Part shown: one piece after another, positions 1-59,507 of the stretch
Position numbering within the stretch: the first letter of the stretch is position 1
How the letters are laid out: each line of letters begins with the position of its first letter
Virus record (IMG/VR): IMGVR_UViG_3300010412_000013
Coordinates: 1 to 60,506 of that record
Strand: one strand, 5' to 3'
From: a virus
DNA: 60,506 nt
Position numbers and translations under genes: made by a program
The notes under the pieces: generated by a model
Databases searched by the model: none
What the model saw: only the letters and a program-made list of their open reading frames with translations
Told to the model about the DNA's origin: nothing

Positions 1-1416
1 AAGGATTTCGACACCACCAAAAAAATCCAGAAGTTGCTTGATACCAAGGTCACCATCTTTGAGAAATACGATGGAACCAAATTGACTCTGGTACGCAATG
101 ATGCCAAATGGTCTCCAAACTATGAAGATAACTGGATTGTGGCATTTAAAGGGAACATTCTGTACCCAGAAGAATTTGGTGGAATCAAGGCAACCAACCA
201 GATTGTCAAGAGTTCTATTGGAACGAGCCAGTATGCGCTTATTCACAAACACCTGAAAAAAGTTCATTCAAAGACAAAGGACATACCGACCAATACCGAG
301 TTCTTTATTGAATACCTGATGAACAAACCCACTCTCACAAGAGACTATACCCACAAGCATGGAATGATTTTGTTGGCTTGGTCACCTACCCGATTCAGTG
401 TGACCAACGGAAAATTGAAGACCGTATCGAGCCAGTTCAATGTAAAGAACAGGGAAAAATTTGCCAAGGAGCTTGGTCTGAATGTTCCAAGGGTTCTCTA
501 TGACAAGAAGCCACTTGGCGGTTTTGTGACAGGGAGTTTCGATACACCTGAACAGAAGCTGCTTGCCATCAAGGAAAAATTGCTTGCTATAGATTCGGAA
601 TTCGGTGGCAAGACAGAAGGCGTTGTTATCCAGTTGCTTCCAAATGGTGGCATATACAAGTTCCTACAGAATGACCAACATGACGATTTGGTCAGGTCAG
701 ACAAGAAAAGCCGCTATAAGATGTCACAGGAAGAAGAGTCCAAATACTATGAGTCTATCAGGAAAATAGTTGAGCCTATGGTCGACAAGGTTGACAAGAA
801 AGACCTGAAGACATCGTTGGGTATCCTGTCTCATGAAATCTATAGCATGAAGAACCTTCCAAAGCATGACAAGAAAGAGCCAATCAATGTTCAGGATGAC
901 ATGTTCCTGACTGCCAAGACATCGCTGATAAAGCGAATGGAAGGCAACAATGGTGCATTGTTTAGTGGAAGGTTCTCGCCTCCCACAAAGGCACACATTG
1001 CCATCATCGAAGACGCATTGAAAAAATACGATACTGTCACACTAAATATCGTCAAGTCAGGAAAACTGGATGAAAAGAATCCTTTCCCTTATGACCTGCA
1101 AGAGAAGATATGGAGAAGCGTTTTCCCAAAGCTGACCATCCAGTCAACGAATACAGGAAACCTGATAACCGCACTGAAAAAGGCAGAAAACAATATCAAT
1201 GTGGTTCTCACAGGAACCGACAGGCTTAATGAGTATAAATCCCAATTGGCTGCCAATCCTGATATCAAGGTGGTTGAAATCAAGAGAACCACCGAAGACA
1301 TATCAGCAACCAAGGCAAGGAATGCCATCAAGAATAACAACAGAGCCGAGTTTGAAAAGAATATGGATAGACGCACATGGAAATTCTATGACGAACTGAA
1401 AAAATATGTAGGATGA
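1..1416 (+). CDS. RNA/DNA ligase-like domain fused to NMN adenylyltransferase-like domain (5' partial)
   Basis: The frame is open from the first base, so the start lies upstream. Domain 1 looks like a covalent nucleotidyltransferase (ligase superfamily): motif I K-Y-D-G at bases 64-75 (lysine would carry AMP), a motif III-like E-F-F-I-E-Y, and motif IV T-E-G-V-V-I near base 610. Domain 2 (about base 955 to the end) is a HIGH-type nucleotidyltransferase: G-R-F-S-P-P-T-K-A-H at 967-996 and I-S-A-T-K-A-R at 1300-1320, the two signatures of NadM/cytidylyltransferase proteins that bind the nucleotide triphosphate. Known family chemistry is NMN + ATP to NAD, or CTP transfer. Which substrate is used here, and whether the ligase domain seals RNA, is inference. 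A degenerate paralogue of domain 2 follows 3 bases downstream. Confidence 0.7.
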   Translation, partial: KDFDTTKKIQKLLDTKVTIFEKYDGTKLTLVRNDAKWSPNYEDNWIVAFKGNILYPEEFGGIKATNQIVKSSIGTSQYALIHKHLKKVHSKTKDIPTNTEFFIEYLMNKPTLTRDYTHKHGMILLAWSPTRFSVTNGKLKTVSSQFNVKNREKFAKELGLNVPRVLYDKKPLGGFVTGSFDTPEQKLLAIKEKLLAIDSEFGGKTEGVVIQLLPNGGIYKFLQNDQHDDLVRSDKKSRYKMSQEEESKYYESIRKIVEPMVDKVDKKDLKTSLGILSHEIYSMKNLPKHDKKEPINVQDDMFLTAKTSLIKRMEGNNGALFSGRFSPPTKAHIAIIEDALKKYDTVTLNIVKSGKLDEKNPFPYDLQEKIWRSVFPKLTIQSTNTGNLITALKKAENNINVVLTGTDRLNEYKSQLAANPDIKVVEIKRTTEDISATKARNAIKNNNRAEFEKNMDRRTWKFYDELKKYVG

Positions 1417-27388: not shown

Positions 27389-28372
27389 ATGCAAGAGTTC
27401 AACGACTTCAATCTATTACAAGAGGGGATTTCGCCCCTCTTGTTCCATATTACGAGCATAAAAAGCCTCTACGAAATGCTGAGTGGAGACAGGCTTTTCT
27501 TGCGCCCGTTGCTGAGGTCAATGGCAGACACTGTGGCTGACCCGTCAGGAATCTCGTCTACCGGAAAGGGTAAGGTTGAAAAGCTGTTCTTCCTGTCTAC
27601 TGCAAGAACCATGCATAGCCAGTACATCGACAGTTCATTCGACCGCTCCCGTGCCCATGTGGTTCTGGAACTGGATGGCAGGCTTCTGTCTACCCGTTAT
27701 TCCGGCAATCCCCTGGACTATTGGGGAAAAGACTTCCGCAACATGCTCAGTGGCAAGTATGAACAGGAAGACAGGATTTACCATACAGAACCCTATATCC
27801 CAAATGCCACAAAGTATATCAAGGCAATTCATATCCACATGCCCCAGACATACATTGACAAGCAGCTAAAAGAAAACGATAACATGAAGAAATTCATATC
27901 GGGTTCATTGCTTGTCGCCAAGAGAAAGGGCGTACCTGTACACTTCTACAATGACAAGGCAACCTTCTTTTCGAGAAGGAATCCGGTCAACTTTGACGTG
28001 TCGGCACTGAAAAGAACCGTTGAACCCTTCTCAAGTTCGATATACCGAGAAGACAGGAATAACACAGTTCTTGTGGCGAGGGGTCTTGCCCGATTCATGA
28101 CCGAGGTCGAGGATGTCAAGACCATGGACAAGGTTCTGGATGAACCCACAAAGAAATGGCTCAGGAACAACATGTTCAAGACAAGGGGGGATTTGGGTCA
28201 AACCGTACAAATCCTGTTCAACGACTTGTCGGATGTCTCAATTTCTACTGACGCCAGCCGAGATGCTGCAAAGCAGTTGGCAAAGGTCATGAGTAAGTAT
28301 CACATGAGAAGCCCTTCTGATTTTGGGGAACTTATCATTAACAAATACATTAAACTAACCAGAGGCATATAA
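27389..28372 (+). CDS. Leader-bearing possible ADP-ribosyltransferase-fold protein
   Basis: 327 residues. The leader M-Q-E-F-N-D-F-N-L-L-Q-E has a cut site after residue 12. The following L-L-F-H-I-T-S (about 17-23) has the strand-plus-histidine of H-Y-E-type ADP-ribosyltransferases and related 2'-phosphotransferases. K-L-F-F-L-S-T-A-R and H-V-V-L-E-L-D-G-R-L-L come next, as in a phage family of unknown activity. The conserved C-terminal acidic residue is not clear, so the assignment is tentative. It precedes the endolysin. Confidence 0.45.
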   Translation: MQEFNDFNLLQEGISPLLFHITSIKSLYEMLSGDRLFLRPLLRSMADTVADPSGISSTGKGKVEKLFFLSTARTMHSQYIDSSFDRSRAHVVLELDGRLLSTRYSGNPLDYWGKDFRNMLSGKYEQEDRIYHTEPYIPNATKYIKAIHIHMPQTYIDKQLKENDNMKKFISGSLLVAKRKGVPVHFYNDKATFFSRRNPVNFDVSALKRTVEPFSSSIYREDRNNTVLVARGLARFMTEVEDVKTMDKVLDEPTKKWLRNNMFKTRGDLGQTVQILFNDLSDVSISTDASRDAAKQLAKVMSKYHMRSPSDFGELIINKYIKLTRGI

Positions 28373-28373
28373 T

Positions 28374-28889
28374 ATGAAATATGAACCTAATGCATTGGTA
28401 CACGCACTGGCACCTAACTTCAAGATGTTTGAAATCGCCAAATCTTCAACCGCCACCCGTTATGGAATAGAGAATACCCCATCACCGGAAGTGGTAGACA
28501 ATGCCATAGAGCTGGCTGTAAACTGTCTTCAACCCATTCGCAAACAGTTTGGCGCGGTTCATGTGGAATCGTGGTATCGTTGCGAAGAACTGGAAAAAAT
28601 CATTGCCAAGTCAGGTTTTGAATCGTGGTGCAAGAAGAATGGTCGAAATGTGACCGACCCCAAGTCATGGGATGATTATTTTGCGGTCAAGTCTCACCCG
28701 AAAGGTGAGGCGGCTGACATTGAAGTGGGTGGATTGTCCAATGATGTTCTGTTCGAATGGTGCAAGAAGAACCTGAAATATGACCAATTGATTCGCGAAT
28801 TCCCGAAAGCTGGTGACCCTATGTCCGGCTGGGTTCATATTTCCTACCGCAAGGGCAACAACAGGCAAATGGCTTTCACGATTGGATAA
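28374..28889 (+). CDS. Endolysin, peptidase M15 (DD-carboxypeptidase/endopeptidase)
   Basis: 171 residues. H108 and D115 in S-H-P-K-G-E-A-A-D-I and H155 in G-W-V-H-I-S-Y are the zinc ligands of the M15 family (VanY/DD-peptidase type), which cut peptide bonds in peptidoglycan. No signal peptide or cell-wall-binding domain, so release would depend on a holin. In the same run as the leader-bearing genes. Confidence 0.8.
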   Translation: MKYEPNALVHALAPNFKMFEIAKSSTATRYGIENTPSPEVVDNAIELAVNCLQPIRKQFGAVHVESWYRCEELEKIIAKSGFESWCKKNGRNVTDPKSWDDYFAVKSHPKGEAADIEVGGLSNDVLFEWCKKNLKYDQLIREFPKAGDPMSGWVHISYRKGNNRQMAFTIG

Positions 28890-28892
28890 ATA
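28885..28892 (+). promoter_or_regulatory. Late promoter-like GATAAATA
   Basis: GATAAATAC overlaps the stop codon of the endolysin gene, 26 bases upstream of the ATG at 28919. Seven of eight bases match the T4 late consensus. Confidence 0.5.
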
Positions 28893-28918: not shown

Positions 28919-29296
28919 ATGCAAACACTAACAGAAGGGTTCAGCGTACAAGACGTTCTGGACAGACTTGAAATCATGAAGGATGTTCTTCCTATCGTCA
29001 GGAAAGAAGTTCTTTTATCATTCGACAACACGGCTGATAAGGTCTCCGCCTCCAACATAAACACAGTCTTTGATGCACTGGAAAGGTTCACGGGTCAATT
29101 GGAAAAGGGTGTCAAAGGCAAGAAAGCCCTTGATGACAAAGACAAGAAAGCCATCAAGAACTATGTATTCATCTACAATGATGTCGGCAATAAGGTCAAT
29201 TCACTTCTGAATGCAAAGAAAGCCAAACGTAGCCACAACCTGAAAGTAGGGTTCGACATGATGAATCATGCTGTCAGGGTTATATCACAGGCTTGA
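28919..29296 (+). CDS. Small helical protein with short leader-like start
   Basis: 125 residues. It begins M-Q-T-L-T-E-G-F, putting a hydrophobic-x-E site at residue 6, then three long helices with Lys/Asp-rich loops. A late-type promoter lies just upstream. No family recognised. Confidence 0.5.
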   Translation: MQTLTEGFSVQDVLDRLEIMKDVLPIVRKEVLLSFDNTADKVSASNINTVFDALERFTGQLEKGVKGKKALDDKDKKAIKNYVFIYNDVGNKVNSLLNAKKAKRSHNLKVGFDMMNHAVRVISQA

Positions 29297-29299
29297 ATC

Positions 29300-30058
29300 A
29301 TGCAATCATTTATCCAACACACACAACTCGATGAAGCCCTTTCAAAGGTCACTTATGAGCAATATACCGCCATCATGGAAGGAAGGCTTGATGAAGGCAT
29401 TATTGATTTTGCCGTTGGTCTGAAGAAAGACATAGCCAAGGTGTTTGCTGAATTTAAGGATGAAATCCAGAAACTGATTCAGGAATTTGGTGATGAAGCC
29501 AAGGATATTGCCAAGGGATTTGCCACCAAGAAGATGTTCTACATTTTCAGGGCATTCAAGTTCAGTGTGAAAGCCATGACAGCTATCTTGGTGAAGGTTG
29601 CCGGTCTGTGGAGAGAAAGCCTTGGTGCCATATTCGAGGAAATGGCAAAGAGTGGTATCATGAAAAAAATACAAAGTGGTGCCATGAAGATTGACGAGGT
29701 TCTTGCCAAGTACCCCATCCTGAAAAAAATAAGTGGTCCACTGGTTGCCGGTCTACTGATTTATATCTGGCTGAACATGTCATTTATTGGCGACCCGCAA
29801 TATGACCTTGACTTCATGTCTGTGTTCGGTGCGCTTGGTGGAAATTTTTCACTGGCTGACCTGTTCACTGGAAAATCCGGATTGATGTTGATTACATTGT
29901 TTAGTACAGGCGGATTTATATCTGCACCATGGTTGGGCAATACTGCTGCAAATATTGTGTTGGCATTGATGTATACCGCACTTACTGCCTACAAGAAAAA
30001 TCATCCGGTGGCTGTAAGGCTACGCAACAAACTGAAAATGGTGAGGGTGAGAGCATGA
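29300..30058 (+). CDS. Leader-bearing membrane protein
   Basis: 252 residues. Candidate protease sites at L-D-E (residue 12), I-M-E (27) and L-D-E (31) precede an amphipathic helical segment. Hydrophobic segments run near residues 150-167 (S-G-P-L-V-A-G-L-L-I-Y-I-W-L-N-M-S-F) and 198-235. A membrane protein with prohead-type sites is unusual; one possibility is an internal ejection protein that enters the host envelope with the DNA. Its 4-base overlap with the first ADP-ribosyltransferase-like gene links it to them. Confidence 0.55.
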   Translation: MQSFIQHTQLDEALSKVTYEQYTAIMEGRLDEGIIDFAVGLKKDIAKVFAEFKDEIQKLIQEFGDEAKDIAKGFATKKMFYIFRAFKFSVKAMTAILVKVAGLWRESLGAIFEEMAKSGIMKKIQSGAMKIDEVLAKYPILKKISGPLVAGLLIYIWLNMSFIGDPQYDLDFMSVFGALGGNFSLADLFTGKSGLMLITLFSTGGFISAPWLGNTAANIVLALMYTALTAYKKNHPVAVRLRNKLKMVRVRA

Positions 30059-31116
30059 AAAATTTTTCTGATATGTCAAAGGTCATTACCGAAAAGCGTT
30101 CACATTCTGATGTGAACCAGAGAACGTCTTTGTCGCATGAGTTTATGAAGGTCATCGATAACAACAATATCTATATTCACTTTTCAAACAAGAACATTAT
30201 TGGTGTTACAGCTAACCCTGATTACAATACACCTGCCGGTGTCTATGCATGGCAGTTGAATTCCTACAAGAAGGAAATAAAAGACAGGATTGCCGATAGT
30301 GTACATGATGCAAATAAAACGCTACAAAGAATTGATTCTGGTGAGTATGTTATCGATTCCCTTCCTGCAAAAATAGCATTCGAAAACACCAAACGAACTG
30401 CTGCCGGTCATGACATCTCGGTAAACATCGTGTTCCCTTACAGAGGCGATGCCAAATTTGTTCACATACTGGAAGCCAAGTCTGGTCTGAGGTGGTTTAG
30501 GTTAGGAAGTTCAGAGAGACTTTCTAGGCAGGAATTCTATAAAAACATGGAGATTCTTGAAACCTTCATACTGAATAATCCAACATATTCAAGCCTGTTC
30601 ACTGTGGGTGACATGTCAGACTTTGTGGATTTTCTTGAATCGTCCGAAAATGAACTAGACCACTACAATAACTTCTTTGCAAAAACTTATTACAATATGA
30701 GTATGGTCAGGAAAGAGGTTGACCGTGGCGCAGATGAAGCCAAGAGATGGTATTTGAGGCTGAATTATTTTGGTGCATTTGCTACATACAATCCATTTTC
30801 AAACAGAAGCATATTACTCTACTCACTGATTAATAGAATGAACAATTTTCTTCCTGAAGGCAGACAGGCTAACATGAAGAATGTGATTTTCAGGGAGATG
30901 GGTTATGATGCCATCCGTGATGATGGTTCAGGCGTTATATTCAATTGGGATGAACGCCATCAAGTTGTGTTCCTACACTCAGGCGCGTACAAGGTAAAAA
31001 CCATGCTTCCCAATACCGACATTTCAAGAAGCGAGAGGCATGAGTTATTTGGAAGGGGCAAGTCGAGACCAAAAGGCGAAAAGGGTTCTGGTGTAGGAGT
31101 AATTAATAAACCATGA
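30055..31116 (+). CDS. ADP-ribosyltransferase-like paralogue 1, with leader
   Basis: 353 residues from the ATG at 30055, which overlaps the previous stop. The leader M-K-N-F-S-D-M-S-K-V-I-T-E ends at a candidate cut after E13, then K-R-S-H. A strand with H42 (I-Y-I-H-F-S-N), Y64 in A-G-V-Y-A-W-Q-L-N and Q303 in H-Q-V-V-F-L give an H-Y-Q pattern. Just before the last motif is M-G-Y-D-A-I-R-D-D-G-S-G, typical of ADP-ribosyltransferase domains in phage polyvalent proteins. First of four tandem copies. Confidence 0.6.
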   Translation: MKNFSDMSKVITEKRSHSDVNQRTSLSHEFMKVIDNNNIYIHFSNKNIIGVTANPDYNTPAGVYAWQLNSYKKEIKDRIADSVHDANKTLQRIDSGEYVIDSLPAKIAFENTKRTAAGHDISVNIVFPYRGDAKFVHILEAKSGLRWFRLGSSERLSRQEFYKNMEILETFILNNPTYSSLFTVGDMSDFVDFLESSENELDHYNNFFAKTYYNMSMVRKEVDRGADEAKRWYLRLNYFGAFATYNPFSNRSILLYSLINRMNNFLPEGRQANMKNVIFREMGYDAIRDDGSGVIFNWDERHQVVFLHSGAYKVKTMLPNTDISRSERHELFGRGKSRPKGEKGSGVGVINKP

Positions 31117-32204
31117 AAAAATTTTCCGAAGTATCAAAAGAACTGAATGAGAAACGTGCCCATGCCGACATGAATCCCAAGGAAAGTGTTGTCAAGTATT
31201 TGCTGGACAATCTGAATAACAACAACGTTTACATTCACTTCTCGAATATCGAAAAGGTAGGAATCAATCCAAACACAAAATGGGCAACACCCATTGGTGT
31301 CTATGGATGGCAGTTGAACTACTACAAGAAAAAACTCATTCAGAATGTCGAAGACGTTAAAAATATTGCTGTCGATTTTTTCAAGGAATATAAACTGACA
31401 CCCAATTCAACACAGGCTGAGGTTGAAGCAAAGGGAATAGACTGGAAGAACTTTGTCTCTGCCGTGGGAATGTTGAATGGCACTTCTGGGGTTAAACTGG
31501 CTCGCGTATTTCCCTTCATGACTGAAGCAAAGTATATGCACGTTATCGAAGCCAAGTCAGGTCTCAAGTGGTTAAGGATTGGTGATTCAAGAACCAGTGA
31601 TAAGGAAGTTATGGATGGAGTGAAGATATTGGAAATGTTCATCCTTAAAGAAAGTGACAAGACAGTAGAAAACATGACTGGTCATAAGCTGGATGGCAGT
31701 TCAAACTATATGCGACTATTCAGGGAATCTGACTTTCCCGCACTCAAAAAGTGGTTCGGCTTATCTGAAGAAAAAATCAAAACAACTCTTGAAAGGCTAC
31801 AGAATAATCCGAATCCAGCCGAAATGAAGCCTTGGCTTGCCAGAGCCATAATCACTGATGTGATGGCACTACATACAACGAAAGATGGAAATGCCAAGTT
31901 CCTGTTTCAGTTGGTCAATGACATTTCAATGAATTTGGTAAAATCTCGCTTGCAGGCAGGCATCATGAAAACGACCATATACAGGGCTATGGGTTACGAT
32001 GCTATCCGCGATGATGGTACTGGTACATTCTATAGCATGAATGAGCCTGCCCAAGTGGTATTCCTGCACCCGAATGCCTACACGGTCAGGAAGACACTAA
32101 ATAATGATTCGGTTGAGAGAGAAAAGCGTAAAGCCCTTTTCGGTTTCGATTCCCAGACAAAAGCAGATTCATTTAAAAAAGCAAAATTCGAAAGCAGTTG
32201 GTAA
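31113..32204 (+). CDS. ADP-ribosyltransferase-like paralogue 2, with leader
   Basis: 363 residues. The leader M-K-K-F-S-E-V-S-K-E-L-N-E is followed by K-R-A-H-A-D-M-N. H42, Y64 (I-G-V-Y-G-W-Q-L-N) and Q314 in A-Q-V-V-F-L occupy the same places as in paralogue 1. F-P-F-M-T-E-A-K-Y-M-H-V-I-E-A-K-S-G-L and M-G-Y-D-A-I-R-D-D-G-T-G are conserved in all four. The C-terminus is longer and basic. It overlaps the previous gene by 4 bases. Confidence 0.6.
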   Translation: MKKFSEVSKELNEKRAHADMNPKESVVKYLLDNLNNNNVYIHFSNIEKVGINPNTKWATPIGVYGWQLNYYKKKLIQNVEDVKNIAVDFFKEYKLTPNSTQAEVEAKGIDWKNFVSAVGMLNGTSGVKLARVFPFMTEAKYMHVIEAKSGLKWLRIGDSRTSDKEVMDGVKILEMFILKESDKTVENMTGHKLDGSSNYMRLFRESDFPALKKWFGLSEEKIKTTLERLQNNPNPAEMKPWLARAIITDVMALHTTKDGNAKFLFQLVNDISMNLVKSRLQAGIMKTTIYRAMGYDAIRDDGTGTFYSMNEPAQVVFLHPNAYTVRKTLNNDSVEREKRKALFGFDSQTKADSFKKAKFESSW

Positions 32205-32207
32205 GTA

Positions 32208-33236
32208 ATGAAAAAGTTTTCAGAACTCACAAAGGTATTATCAGAGAAACGTGCCCATGCCGACATGAATGAAAAGGAATGGGTTGCCAAATATCTGATG
32301 GATAACATCAACAACAATAACCTGTACCTTCACTTCTCGAACATCAACAAGGTCGGCATCAAGCCAAGAAACGAATGGGATACGCCTCAAGGTGTCTATG
32401 GATGGCAGTTGAATGCATACAAGAAAACCATCAAGAAAATAGTCAGTGACGTGTCTGCTGATGCAAAGCAGACTATGGGTCAAAAAACCTACTTTGATAC
32501 CATGAATGACAAGGAGAAATACCTAACAACACAAAGAGCCAAGGGCGATGGAAGCGGAGTTTTTCTTACTGGTGTATTTCCATTCAGGGATGATTCCACC
32601 TACCTTCATGTGATTGAAGCCAAGTCTGGTCTCAGGTGGCTGAAACTTCATGGTGGAAACCACACACTTGATGACTTTCTGGACATCCTGAATGCCATCG
32701 AGATATATTGGTCACATAACGCAGACACTATGGGTTACATGAGAAGGGAAATGAATGCAGACAGAACTCCTGTTTATAAATTCACCCAAGAACAAATTTC
32801 CATGATGAAAAGGTACTACCAGCTTGACGACAGCGAAATACAGAAGGTCATTGAAAAGTTATATGACGAATACAAGACAAACAAACAAAGCCAGCTTTCT
32901 ACTATATGGTATTTCAGAAAAGAGTATATAATGTATTACATCTATAGCTATATGAATCGAGGTAATGCTTTTTCTGTTGGTGCTTATATGCTACTCAAAA
33001 TTGTTTGCAAAAAGCTATCAAGAAATGACGCACAGGTTGCCATTTCGATGAATGCCATCCTACGCGCCGCCGGTTTTGATGCGGTTCGTGATGATGGTGA
33101 AGGAATCCTGTTCAATGATGACGAGAGTAATCAGGTTGTGTTCCTACACGCAGGCGCGTACACGGTCAAGAAAACTTTGCTCAATACGTCACTGCCCCGT
33201 AGCACCAGAGCCAAAGTGTTTGGTAAGGGAGCATAA
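32208..33236 (+). CDS. ADP-ribosyltransferase-like paralogue 3, with leader
   Basis: 342 residues, the shortest copy. Leader M-K-K-F-S-E-L-T-K-V-L-S-E; H42, Y64 and Q309 match the other copies. The middle insert (about 150-250) is the most divergent part, so paralogues may recognise different targets. Here the G-Y-D-A-I motif reads G-F-D-A-V-R-D-D-G-E-G. Confidence 0.6.
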   Translation: MKKFSELTKVLSEKRAHADMNEKEWVAKYLMDNINNNNLYLHFSNINKVGIKPRNEWDTPQGVYGWQLNAYKKTIKKIVSDVSADAKQTMGQKTYFDTMNDKEKYLTTQRAKGDGSGVFLTGVFPFRDDSTYLHVIEAKSGLRWLKLHGGNHTLDDFLDILNAIEIYWSHNADTMGYMRREMNADRTPVYKFTQEQISMMKRYYQLDDSEIQKVIEKLYDEYKTNKQSQLSTIWYFRKEYIMYYIYSYMNRGNAFSVGAYMLLKIVCKKLSRNDAQVAISMNAILRAAGFDAVRDDGEGILFNDDESNQVVFLHAGAYTVKKTLLNTSLPRSTRAKVFGKGA

Positions 33237-33237
33237 T

Positions 33238-34395
33238 ATGCAATTCAAAGAATTCCCCAACCTTATGGAAAAACGCGCACACAGTGAACTCAATCCAAAA
33301 GATTGGGTGGCAAAGAATATCATGGATGTCATTGACAACAACAATATCTATATCCATTTTGGAAACATTGAAAAAGTTGGTATTGACCCAGTAACACAAT
33401 GGGAAACTCCAAATGGTGTCTATGCATGGCAGTTGAACGCATACAAGAAAAAGATAAAGGAAAGGGTTGCGGATTATAAGAATGCTGCCATAAAAACTCT
33501 TGGTGGATATGGTTTAAGTGAAAAATCCACTACTGCCGAAATTATGGCAGTATTGAAACAGGTTCCTGAAAACAATAGGGTTCTTGTTAATGCGCTGAAT
33601 ACTATCAGGGGGGATGGTACGGGTGTTAGTATAATGAACATCTTTCCATTCAGGGATGATTCCAAATATGTGCATATACTCGAAGCCAAGTCCGGCTTGA
33701 AGTGGCTGAAACTGTATAAGGGAAATGCTTCGATGGCTGACCTTAAACATGCCTGCGAAACACTTGAAATGTATCTGTTGAATTCAAACAAAGACATTTC
33801 CAAGGTAATTTCGTTTGACGTGTTTTCAGTTCTATCTGACGATAAAGAGGTTTTTGGCAAGAAGGTTTCATTTGACCAAAATGAAATGTCTTGGGTAAAA
33901 ATGATTTATGGTATTGATAATAAACATATCAAGGCAGTATTGAACACAATTGATAAAGGAAATGATTCAAAACTTGAGAGACTGTGGTATGTCAGGAAGC
34001 TGGTTGTCAATGTTGCCGAATATGTTGGTTATGACAGAAGCAATATCAATAAGGTGATTTACCATATTGTTGAAAGGGTTGCGCGTAGACTTGATACCAA
34101 TGACGCAAAGAGAGCCGCGATTAAAACGGTTCTGTTCAGAGCTATGGGATATGATGCCATCCGTGATGATGGTGGAGGCATTCTTTATAATTCTGGTGAA
34201 CCATCACAGGTCGTGTTCCTAACACCCAATTCATATATCGTCAAGAAGACGATGAACAATGATTCGTTGTCTAGGCTGAAACGTCAGGAGTGGTTCGGCT
34301 ATGATAGCCAGACCGGACAAGATTCTACCCAGAAGTTTGAGAACTCCCATGTGACGACAGCAAAGCTGGGTAAACCAGTGAAGGCATTCCAGTAA
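33238..34395 (+). CDS. ADP-ribosyltransferase-like paralogue 4, with leader
   Basis: 385 residues from the ATG at 33238, the longest copy. The leader is two residues shorter (M-Q-F-K-E-F-P-N-L-M-E), so the motif residues are H40, Y62 and Q324. It adds an extra helical segment in the middle and a basic tail. The last of four tandem copies; transcription then restarts at the promoter at 34424. Confidence 0.6.
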   Translation: MQFKEFPNLMEKRAHSELNPKDWVAKNIMDVIDNNNIYIHFGNIEKVGIDPVTQWETPNGVYAWQLNAYKKKIKERVADYKNAAIKTLGGYGLSEKSTTAEIMAVLKQVPENNRVLVNALNTIRGDGTGVSIMNIFPFRDDSKYVHILEAKSGLKWLKLYKGNASMADLKHACETLEMYLLNSNKDISKVISFDVFSVLSDDKEVFGKKVSFDQNEMSWVKMIYGIDNKHIKAVLNTIDKGNDSKLERLWYVRKLVVNVAEYVGYDRSNINKVIYHIVERVARRLDTNDAKRAAIKTVLFRAMGYDAIRDDGGGILYNSGEPSQVVFLTPNSYIVKKTMNNDSLSRLKRQEWFGYDSQTGQDSTQKFENSHVTTAKLGKPVKAFQ

Positions 34396-34487: not shown

Positions 34488-35024
34488 ATGAGTAAAATCC
34501 TGATTATCGCTCTCCATGGCAAGAATAGCCATCCCAACAAGTCTGCCACCATCAAGGCTATTCGAGAACGATTCTCAAATGAGAACGAGTTTCGTATTCT
34601 TGCCCCTGCCTATGACTCCACAAAGCGTTTTGGGGAGCTTGTCGAATACTTTGACCTGTTGCTGCCCCGACTGAATAAAATCGCTGAAAAGCACGAAATT
34701 GTGGCTGTGGTGGGCACTTCCTTGGGTGGTTTCTGGGCACGTTACATTGCGTCTAAAATCACTGGTGCCGGTTGGATTGGTCTGAACCCCAGTATGTTAT
34801 TCTATGGTATTGGTGTGATTGGTTGTGGTTTTGGTGAAAACCCTAATACTCCCAAAAGACTGATTATTGCCGGTGATGATGATGTAGTCGACCCCAATGT
34901 GGCTGTCGACATGTTCCGTGGTGATGCCCACATAACCGTGATTGATGGCGGTCACCGTTTCACCGAGAATCTTGGCACCGTCTTGGCTCTTGTCGAGAAA
35001 TCAATATATACCCTTCACGATTAA
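34488..35024 (+). CDS. YqiA/UPF0227-like serine esterase
   Basis: 178 residues. L-H-G near the start, nucleophile elbow G-T-S-L-G-G (about 75-80), D-D-D-V-V-D with the acid and G-G-H-R-F with the base form the alpha/beta-hydrolase triad of YqiA-type esterases. These cleave small esters; substrate in infection unknown. Has its own promoter. Confidence 0.7.
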   Translation: MSKILIIALHGKNSHPNKSATIKAIRERFSNENEFRILAPAYDSTKRFGELVEYFDLLLPRLNKIAEKHEIVAVVGTSLGGFWARYIASKITGAGWIGLNPSMLFYGIGVIGCGFGENPNTPKRLIIAGDDDVVDPNVAVDMFRGDAHITVIDGGHRFTENLGTVLALVEKSIYTLHD

Positions 35025-35633: not shown

Positions 35634-35668
35634 AATAAATACCGGAAAGCCTAACGCAATCCGGTATT
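35634..35668 (+). promoter_or_regulatory. Late promoter-like AATAAATA overlapping a 9-bp hairpin
   Basis: AATAAATA at 35634-35641 followed by CC. AATACCGGA (35638-35646) is perfectly complementary to TCCGGTATT (35660-35668) with a 13-base loop. The hairpin would sit at the very 5' end of the late transcript; it is also terminator-like but has only TTCTC after it. Confidence 0.5.
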
Positions 35669-35673
35669 CTCAC

Positions 35674-36258
35674 ATGAAGCAATTCAAAGAACTCAGGCAG
35701 GAAGCCGACCAACACAAGAACCTGACAGAATCCTTCAAGAACCTGTTCGACAAGGATTCCGAAGAACGCAAGAAATATGCTGGCGAAGTCTGGAACATCC
35801 TGCAAACATCCTACGCCAAGATAGGTGGCATCAAGGGAAACGGTTTCAGGTCGATTGATGACATGATAGCCAGCATACCCTTCTGGAAGCTATCCATCCG
35901 CAATGGCATCGTGACAGCCGTGGCAATGTACAAAGACACCAATGGAAGGAAGCGTGTCGCCATAGGAACCAATGGAACCCCGCAGGGCAAGTCTGATATA
36001 GCCAATATCCTAGTGGCTGATATGCGTCAATACAGAGCCTATGCCGAAGTATCCGATGCATCCCTGAAGTTCATCAAGAAGCAGTTTTCTGAACAGGAAA
36101 TGGCAAAGTATTTCGTGCCAGTCGAGGTTGTCCAGAAGAAGGTTTTCCCTTATGAAGAAATCCGACCAGTTGACAAATTCAGCTACATGAGAAACATTGG
36201 TGGCGAATGGAAAGAGAAGGTCATGATTGGCAATGTCAATGCCCCAAGAATCCAGTAA
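35674..36258 (+). CDS. Leader-bearing conserved T4-like protein
   Basis: 194 residues. Leader M-K-Q-F-K-E-L-R-Q-E, with a first L-T-E site at about residue 19. The blocks E-E-R-K-K-Y-A-G-E-V-W, S-Y-A-K-I-G-G-I-K-G-N-G-F and R-K-R-V-A-I-G-T-N-G-T recur in a T4-like phage family with an acetyltransferase-like feel (small strand-loop pattern) but no proven activity. Expressed from the late promoter just upstream, as expected for a head-packaged protein. Confidence 0.6.
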   Translation: MKQFKELRQEADQHKNLTESFKNLFDKDSEERKKYAGEVWNILQTSYAKIGGIKGNGFRSIDDMIASIPFWKLSIRNGIVTAVAMYKDTNGRKRVAIGTNGTPQGKSDIANILVADMRQYRAYAEVSDASLKFIKKQFSEQEMAKYFVPVEVVQKKVFPYEEIRPVDKFSYMRNIGGEWKEKVMIGNVNAPRIQ

Positions 36259-59246: not shown

Positions 59247-59507
59247 ATGAAAAAAATAGTCAATTACTTTACCCGAAAGTCTGATGTATCGGAGGCATTC
59301 GTCATATACCAGAAGGCAGCAAACGTGATACATGGTGTTTATAAGTTTGACCAGACCTATTCTGCTGCATCCTATGCAAATCTGGCTTGCCGAAAAATCA
59401 GGAACCTGAAAATCACAAAAAGTCTATCGGATGAATTGTGTTGTGCAATCTCTGACCTGATAGAAGAAAAACTGGATGAAATTGAACTGGAATCCGAAAA
59501 GAACTGA
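59247..59507 (+). CDS. Hypothetical protein
   Basis: 86 residues, helical with a Glu-rich C-terminus. An alternative promoter-like TATACT (59211-59216) lies upstream, but its -35 is poor. No family recognised. Confidence 0.45.
   Translation: MKKIVNYFTRKSDVSEAFVIYQKAANVIHGVYKFDQTYSAASYANLACRKIRNLKITKSLSDELCCAISDLIEEKLDEIELESEKN

What the first reader, a model, noticed from the sequence alone, without database searches (positions are those of the whole stretch)
30055..34395. Four tandem ADP-ribosyltransferase-like paralogues with packaged-type leaders
The four copies conserve H (strand H-F-S/G-N), Y (G-V-Y-x-W-Q-L-N) and Q (Q-V-V-F-L) and the G-(Y/F)-D-A-(I/V)-R-D-D-G block, while the middle insert varies. 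This is the H-Y-Q pattern of phage polyvalent-protein ADP-ribosyltransferase domains. Tandem amplification plus variable insert suggests targets diversified, perhaps against host RNA polymerase, ribosomes or defence proteins.
Basis: partly seen in the sequence, partly recalled or inferred. Interest (0 to 1): 0.85.

Follow-up and report, generated by a model that had tools for sequence, protein, structure and literature searches.

The report
Four tandem phage head-packaged ART-like effectors
A T4-like phage carries four side-by-side copies of a previously unnamed protein family that is predicted to be packed inside the virus head and injected into the bacterium as ADP-ribosyltransferase-type enzymes, with a constant catalytic core and strongly diverged inserts that may aim each copy at a different host target.

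Summary
In detail: four adjacent + strand genes (30055-31116, 31113-32204, 32208-33236, 33238-34395), 33-41% identical, share the quoted H, Y and Q motifs. The folded cores are 53-60% identical and the two inserts only 18-23%. No Pfam or NCBIfam family covers them, but a motif scan of IMG/VR found about 45 relatives in other phages, many large or jumbo, often in tandem. A model built from 40 relatives (pLDDT 79.5) has an ART-like strand order. It matches ART-PolyVal phage proteins structurally, and a profile comparison agrees; no solved ART matched significantly. The short leaders end in (L/I)-x-E, the T4 gp21 cleavage motif; similar leaders occur on ART-PolyVal, GNAT and second ART-like proteins of the same phages, and a T4-type prohead protease is present in 16 of 35 related records. 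Best reading: a new family of head-packaged, injected ART-type effectors, expanded within this phage's own lineage. Catalysis, injection and targets are inferred, not shown.

The parts
30055..31116 (+). Paralogue w1 (353 aa, pI 9.0)
   Evidence: ORF and motifs; pI
31113..32204 (+). Paralogue w2 (363 aa, pI 9.4); overlaps the end of w1
32208..33236 (+). Paralogue w3 (342 aa, pI 9.2)
33238..34395 (+). Paralogue w4 (385 aa, pI 9.2); the protein that was modelled. The longer reading from 33052 overlaps w3 and is not taken as the gene
30055..30093 (+). w1 leader MKNFSDMSKVITE, predicted cleavage after E13 (I-T-E)
   Evidence: L/I-X-E rule PMC9026906
31113..31151 (+). w2 leader MKKFSEVSKELNE, predicted cleavage after E13 (L-N-E)
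32208..32246 (+). w3 leader MKKFSELTKVLSE, predicted cleavage after E13 (L-S-E)
33238..33270 (+). w4 leader MQFKEFPNLME, predicted cleavage after E11 (L-M-E)
33346..33432 (+). w4 strands 1 and 2 (residues 37-65): H40 and Y62, T57-P58-x-G60-x-Y62
   Evidence: secondary structure; conservation
33454..33636 (+). w4 insert 1 (residues 73-133), 23% mean identity between paralogues
33637..33723 (+). w4 strands 3-4 block (residues 134-162)
33724..34107 (+). w4 insert 2 (residues 163-290), helical, 18% mean identity between paralogues
34108..34272 (+). w4 C-terminal core (residues 291-345): GYDAIRDDG...E321-P-S-Q324-VVF
27389..28372 (+). Separate ART-like gene with leader MQEFNDFNLLQE (L-Q-E); invariant H20, S70, E125-x-E127-x-R129 among eight relatives
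28374..28889 (+). Peptidase M15 / endolysin-like gene in the same gene run
28886..28892 (+). ATAAATA, T4 late-promoter-like, 26 nt before the gene at 28919 that heads the run into w1-w4
28919..30058 (+). Two genes of unknown function (28919-29296 and 29300-30058) directly upstream of w1
35635..36258 (+). ATAAATA (35635-35641) plus gene 35674-36258 with a leader-like start MKQFKELRQEA (not an exact L/I-X-E site)

Best explanation
The four genes encode a new family of phage ADP-ribosyltransferase-type effectors that are packed into the head of a T4-like phage and injected with the DNA. Each protein is made late and carried into the prohead core by an 11-13 residue leader. The T4-type prohead protease cuts it after (L/I)-x-E. 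The mature basic protein is ejected into the host, where an ART-like core would transfer ADP-ribose from NAD+ to a host macromolecule. The core has H40 on strand 1, Y62 on strand 2 and Q324 (or E321) at strand 5. The core is held constant while two helical inserts diverge between copies, which fits different targets or evasion of host counter-defence. The ORFs, motifs, duplication, core/insert contrast, leader pattern and genomic setting are shown. The ART-like fold is predicted with good support. Cleavage, injection, catalysis and target diversity are inferred.
For: The AF2 model from 40 relatives has pLDDT 79.5, pTM 0.77 and strands at 37-42 (H40), 61-65 (Y62), 144-150, 156-158, 307-311, 323-327 (Q324) and 333-340, with helical inserts. 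Named Foldseek hits among viral proteins are led by ART-PolyVal-like proteins (E 7.6e-4, probability 1.00; another at 0.97). hhalign of the family core against PF18760 proteins from the same phages aligns the GYDG...(V/A)xFxP module: score 30.7, P 0.0011, best of 60 column shuffles 21.1; with 25 such proteins 24.9 against a best of 17.8 in 100 shuffles. Near-invariant T57, P58, G60, Y62, D310, E321 and Q324 fit an active site. The leader pattern is found in 31 of 51 family genes and 18 of 213 distant genes in the same loci (Fisher P 8e-15). Similar leaders occur on ART-PolyVal, GNAT and second ART-like proteins. Prohead protease S77 is in 16 of 35 records. T4 precedents: Alt, an ART with a 7-residue propeptide, and internal proteins targeted by a 10-residue sequence and cut at L/I-X-E (PMC9026906). 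Iyer et al. argue that phage ARTs are often head-packaged, especially in myoviruses (PMC9503650).
Against: No solved ART structure is matched significantly (best PDB E 0.64; a RES-domain complex only at rank 43). TM-scores to the viral hits are low (about 0.2-0.5). No Pfam or NCBIfam model matches convincingly. The strand-1 histidine is Ser or Thr in most relatives, so NAD+ binding in the family as a whole is unproven. The window is a 60.5 kb fragment with no prohead protease in view. The leader regex was written after seeing the family, so its P value is optimistic, and leader enrichment in close neighbours alone is not significant (16 of 124 against 18 of 213).
Confidence: 0.62

Rival explanations
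1. ART-like fold without transferase activity: the proteins are packaged core or internal head proteins that act by binding (as T4 IPI inhibits a restriction enzyme) or help head assembly.
For: The strand-1 residue drifts between Ser, Thr and His. All four are basic (pI 9.0-9.4) like the T4 internal proteins, described as basic in PMC9026906. Diverged inserts suit binding partners.
Against: Y62, D310, E321 and Q324 are kept at or near 100% while the rest diverges to about 20% identity, which is expected of an active site more than of a binding scaffold.
Confidence: 0.17
2. ART-fold enzyme that uses NAD+ but not to modify a macromolecule: an NADase or small-molecule transferase that drains or rewrites NAD-derived defence signals.
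For: A Nudix gene with a leader-like start sits next to a family member in L127, and Iyer et al. (PMC9503650) describe phage NAD-ADPr countermeasures.
Against: Four copies with divergent inserts are not obviously needed to consume one small molecule.
Confidence: 0.1
3. Late-expressed enzyme that acts in the infected cell and is not packaged; the N-terminus is only a conserved terminal helix.
For: Some relatives lack the leader (L013, L027 in phages G002 and G024, which also lack a recognised S77 protease).
Against: Similar leaders sit on unrelated domains in one cluster, and the cut motif matches the T4 rule in all four window copies.
Confidence: 0.1
4. The proteins are not ARTs at all but an unrelated alpha/beta family that shares a few strand motifs.
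For: No significant PDB match, no convincing profile hit in Pfam, low TM-scores.
Against: Independent profile and fold comparisons both point to ART-PolyVal, and the strand-1/strand-2/strand-5 placement of conserved residues follows ART topology.
Confidence: 0.12

Closest known systems
ART-PolyVal (Pfam PF18760; Tox-ART-HYD2 clade of Iyer et al. 2017)
   Same: Strand-2 Y and the GYDG...(V/A)xFxP C-terminal module; occurs in the same phages and even the same cluster (G021/G022) with similar N-terminal leaders
   Different: Not matched by the Pfam model; E-P-x-Q replaces the strand-5 D; strand 1 is Ser/Thr/His; large helical inserts
T4 Alt (head-packaged ART, Alt/VIP2, R-S-E clade)
   Same: Short cleaved propeptide, packaged and injected, ART (by literature, PMC9026906 and PMC5512222)
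   Different: R-S-E active site against (H/S/T)-Y-(Q/E); no sequence similarity found; not reported as a tandem array of this kind
T4 internal proteins IPI-IPIII
   Same: Basic proteins with a 10-residue capsid targeting sequence cut at L/I-X-E; diverse anti-defence cargo under one leader (PMC9026906, PMC3012670)
   Different: Small, not ART-like
PHROGs 17056, 5925, 25923, 35305
   Same: Match 4-5 of the 40 family members each (best E 7e-28), so part of the family was already clustered
   Different: All labelled unknown function; the window proteins do not match them

Membership tests
ART-PolyVal (PF18760) | Score above the curated cut-off of the profile | tested here: not met
   No PF18760 hit in the window proteins or in any of 40 family members at E 0.1
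ART-PolyVal (PF18760) | Same fold | tested here: met
   Foldseek viral hits named ART-PolyVal-like with probability 1.00 and 0.97, though TM-scores are low; profile match above all shuffles. Rests on a predicted model
ART-PolyVal (PF18760) | H-Y-D active site (Iyer 2017) | tested here: not met
   H only in the window copies and a few relatives, Y met, D replaced by E-P-x-Q (literature)
H-Y-[EDQ] ART clade | Histidine in strand 1 | tested here: inconclusive
   H40 in all four window copies; Ser or Thr in 41 of 46 aligned proteins
H-Y-[EDQ] ART clade | Tyrosine in strand 2 | tested here: met
   Y62 invariant, inside predicted strand 61-65
H-Y-[EDQ] ART clade | E, D or Q at the start of strand 5 | tested here: met
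   E321 and Q324 both invariant; Q324 in predicted strand 323-327. Which is catalytic is open
H-Y-[EDQ] ART clade | NAD+ binding and ADP-ribose transfer | not testable with these tools
T4 Alt/Mod (R-S-E clade) | Arg / Ser / Glu active site | tested here: not met
   Corresponding positions are H/S/T, Y and E-P-x-Q
T4-type capsid-targeted internal proteins | Short N-terminal leader ending at L/I-X-E | tested here: met
   All four copies; leader pattern in 31 of 51 family genes against 18 of 213 distant genes
T4-type capsid-targeted internal proteins | T4-type prohead protease in the genome | tested here: inconclusive
   S77 in 16 of 35 related records, none in the 60.5 kb window fragment
T4-type capsid-targeted internal proteins | Present in the virion in cut form | not testable with these tools
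   Needs virion mass spectrometry

The most novel reading that the evidence does not exclude
A previously unrecognised, widespread class of injected ART effectors with a (H/S/T)-Y-Q or -E active site, in which phages repeatedly build tandem arrays whose constant catalytic core carries fast-diverging target-recognition inserts, forming an expandable arsenal against many host proteins or defences.
Probability: 0.3. Interest if true: 0.78.

Novelty: new variant of a known kind. Interest (0 to 1): 0.6.

Why it matters
If right, a family with no Pfam or NCBIfam name, and only unknown-function PHROGs for some members, becomes a set of testable injected enzymes. The constant core with variable inserts offers a direct way to ask how phage ARTs choose targets. 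The shared leader also gives a simple sequence handle for finding other head-packaged effectors in T4-like and jumbo phages. The Ser/Thr/His variation at strand 1 tests how strict the histidine requirement of this ART clade is.

Tried and rejected
AF2 on the four window proteins alone gave a poor model (pLDDT 45) and was not used. The first IMG/VR scans with window-specific motifs found no relatives, and GYDAIRDDG gave two spurious loci, L005 and L006. tblastn of w4 found nothing in 50,697 phage records, and megablast of a 24 kb stretch found no near relative. The tblastn hits of a relative (L012) in Agrobacterium phage Atu_ph07 and Salicola phage SCTP-2 fall in its C-terminal part and are not family members: the family profile finds no match in either genome. 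hhalign in global mode gave nothing because of a wrong option and was rerun locally. PF18760 was not found in 200 genomes of the phylum of G042, which holds L099. Late-promoter matches (17, expected 10) are only suggestive.

Full report
What is there. Four ORFs lie head to tail on the + strand at 30055-31116, 31113-32204, 32208-33236 and 33238-34395. They encode proteins of 353, 363, 342 and 385 aa, pI 9.0-9.4. Identity is uneven: 60, 57 and 53% in three core blocks, and 23 and 18% in two inserts.

Who are the relatives. Pfam, PHROGs and NCBIfam give no hit for the four proteins beyond noise, and w4 has no tblastn match in 50,697 phage records. Two window-specific motif scans of IMG/VR found nothing. 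A looser pattern, TPxGIYAYP, found 62 stretches, most of which encode relatives. The family consensus is a short leader ending E-A-R, then (F/Y)-(V/I)-(S/T/H)-(F/M)-T, K-(L/I/V)-G-I-N-P, T-P-x-G-I-Y-A-Y-P, P-F-A-G, a large variable region, and G-x-D-G-x-x-D-x-G-x-G-I-I-H-x-x-E-P-x-Q-A-V-F-F. Four PHROGs of unknown function match some members, so part of the family had been clustered but never named. Only two bacterial genome contigs hold a relative.

Fold. The model of w4 from 40 relatives has mean pLDDT 79.5 and pTM 0.77, against 45 from the four window sequences alone. Its strand order, with H40 in strand 1, Y62 in strand 2 and Q324 at the start of a late strand, follows ART topology. Among viral models the named matches are led by ART-PolyVal-like proteins (E 7.6e-4, probability 1.00; another with probability 0.97). 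TM-scores are low. No solved structure matches significantly; a RES-domain complex, a known ART-like fold, appears only at rank 43 with E 6.1. As an independent check, PF18760 proteins found in the same phages were aligned and compared with the family core by hhalign. The GYDG...(V/A)xFxP module aligns with score 30.7, P 0.0011, against a best of 21.1 in 60 column shuffles, and 24.9 against 17.8 in 100 shuffles with a larger set. I take the ART-like fold as likely, about 0.8, not proven.

Active site. G48, T57, P58, G60, Y62, W250, D310, E321 and Q324 are invariant in the 40-protein alignment. The window copies form their own clade with full support on a long branch, and His appears in a few other lineages on that tree. 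Iyer and colleagues give H-Y-D for polyvalent-protein ARTs (PMC5512222) and H-Y-[EDQ] for the wider clade (PMC9503650). The window copies therefore fit the wider clade on paper, while most relatives lack the histidine. Whether E321 or Q324 is the third residue cannot be settled without coordinates or mutants.

Packaging. Each leader ends in I-T-E, L-N-E, L-S-E or L-M-E followed by K-R. T4 gp21 cuts after L/I-X-E. T4 Alt, an ART, loses a 7-residue propeptide, and ten residues suffice to target IPIII into the head (PMC9026906). A leader regex matches 31 of 51 family genes and 18 of 213 distant genes in the same loci (the pattern was written after seeing the family, so the P value of 8e-15 is optimistic). 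In phage G021 a run of genes starting MR/MI/ML-x-x-E-(I/F) includes two family members, a second ART-like family, an ART-PolyVal, GNAT domains, one fused to a GH19 domain, and a Nudix gene with a similar start. Similar leaders on unrelated domains are best explained as a targeting signal. A T4-type prohead protease is found in 16 of 35 related records; the window fragment shows none. Some leaderless members occur in two near-identical phages that also lack a recognised S77 protease.

Neighbourhood. In the window the leadered genes cluster between 27.4 and 36.3 kb, with one further regex match at 59247. The gene at 27389-28372 belongs to a second ART-like family with invariant H20, S70 and E125-x-E127-x-R129. 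In phages G021 and G022 a gene of that family lies next to a family member, and both families sit together on contig L098. The window primase is closest to T4-like Methylophilales and Synechococcus phages at about 41%. ATAAATA sites stand 26 nt before the gene at 28919 and 32 nt before 35674, which suggests but does not show late expression.

Copy number. Twenty-four of 38 related IMG/VR records show two or more matched stretches, a few of them single genes split in two. Tandem sets occur in G002 and G024 (four), G006 and G026 (three). G005 (561 kb) has 11 stretches. Records were chosen by the family motif, so these counts say nothing about phages in general.

Conclusion. The best-supported account is a new family of head-packaged, injected ART-type effectors, amplified in the window phage's lineage with a constant core and diverged inserts. 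It works like the T4 Alt delivery strategy with an ART-PolyVal-like catalytic domain, but it is not a member of PF18760 by score and lacks the R-S-E site of Alt. My estimates: fold about 0.8, packaging about 0.8, catalysis about 0.6; target diversification is a hypothesis.

Noticed in passing
window 27389-28372: A second ART-like family with a packaging-type leader; relatives in Vibrio, Dickeya, Pseudomonas and Salicola phages, and directly beside a family member in G021/G022 and L098.
   Followed up: partly
window 34-1416 and 1420-2310: Nucleotidyltransferase-like genes; the first also has a weak RNA-ligase match and weak nicotinamide-nucleotide adenylyltransferase similarity, a possible NAD-related function.
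   Followed up: no
window 34488-35024: UPF0227-type hydrolase right after the array.
   Followed up: no
L127 4291-17934 (G021 54-68 kb): Cluster of leadered genes: Nudix, two family members, second ART-like, GNAT, GNAT plus GH19, ART-PolyVal.
   Followed up: partly
L098 2403-3038: Leadered gene beside a family member that reads like a small kinase-like protein to me, but Pfam gives no hit.
   Followed up: no
L012 C-terminus (within 1083-2228): The C-terminal part of this relative resembles proteins in Salicola phage SCTP-2 (10 places) and Agrobacterium phage Atu_ph07 (6 places) that are not family members.
   Followed up: no
L013 and L027 (G002, G024): Four tandem family members without the usual leader, in phages without a recognised S77 protease.
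   Followed up: no
L025 and L063: The motif lies inside very long ORFs (1431 and 1207 aa), so the domain also occurs in large, possibly polyvalent proteins.
   Followed up: no
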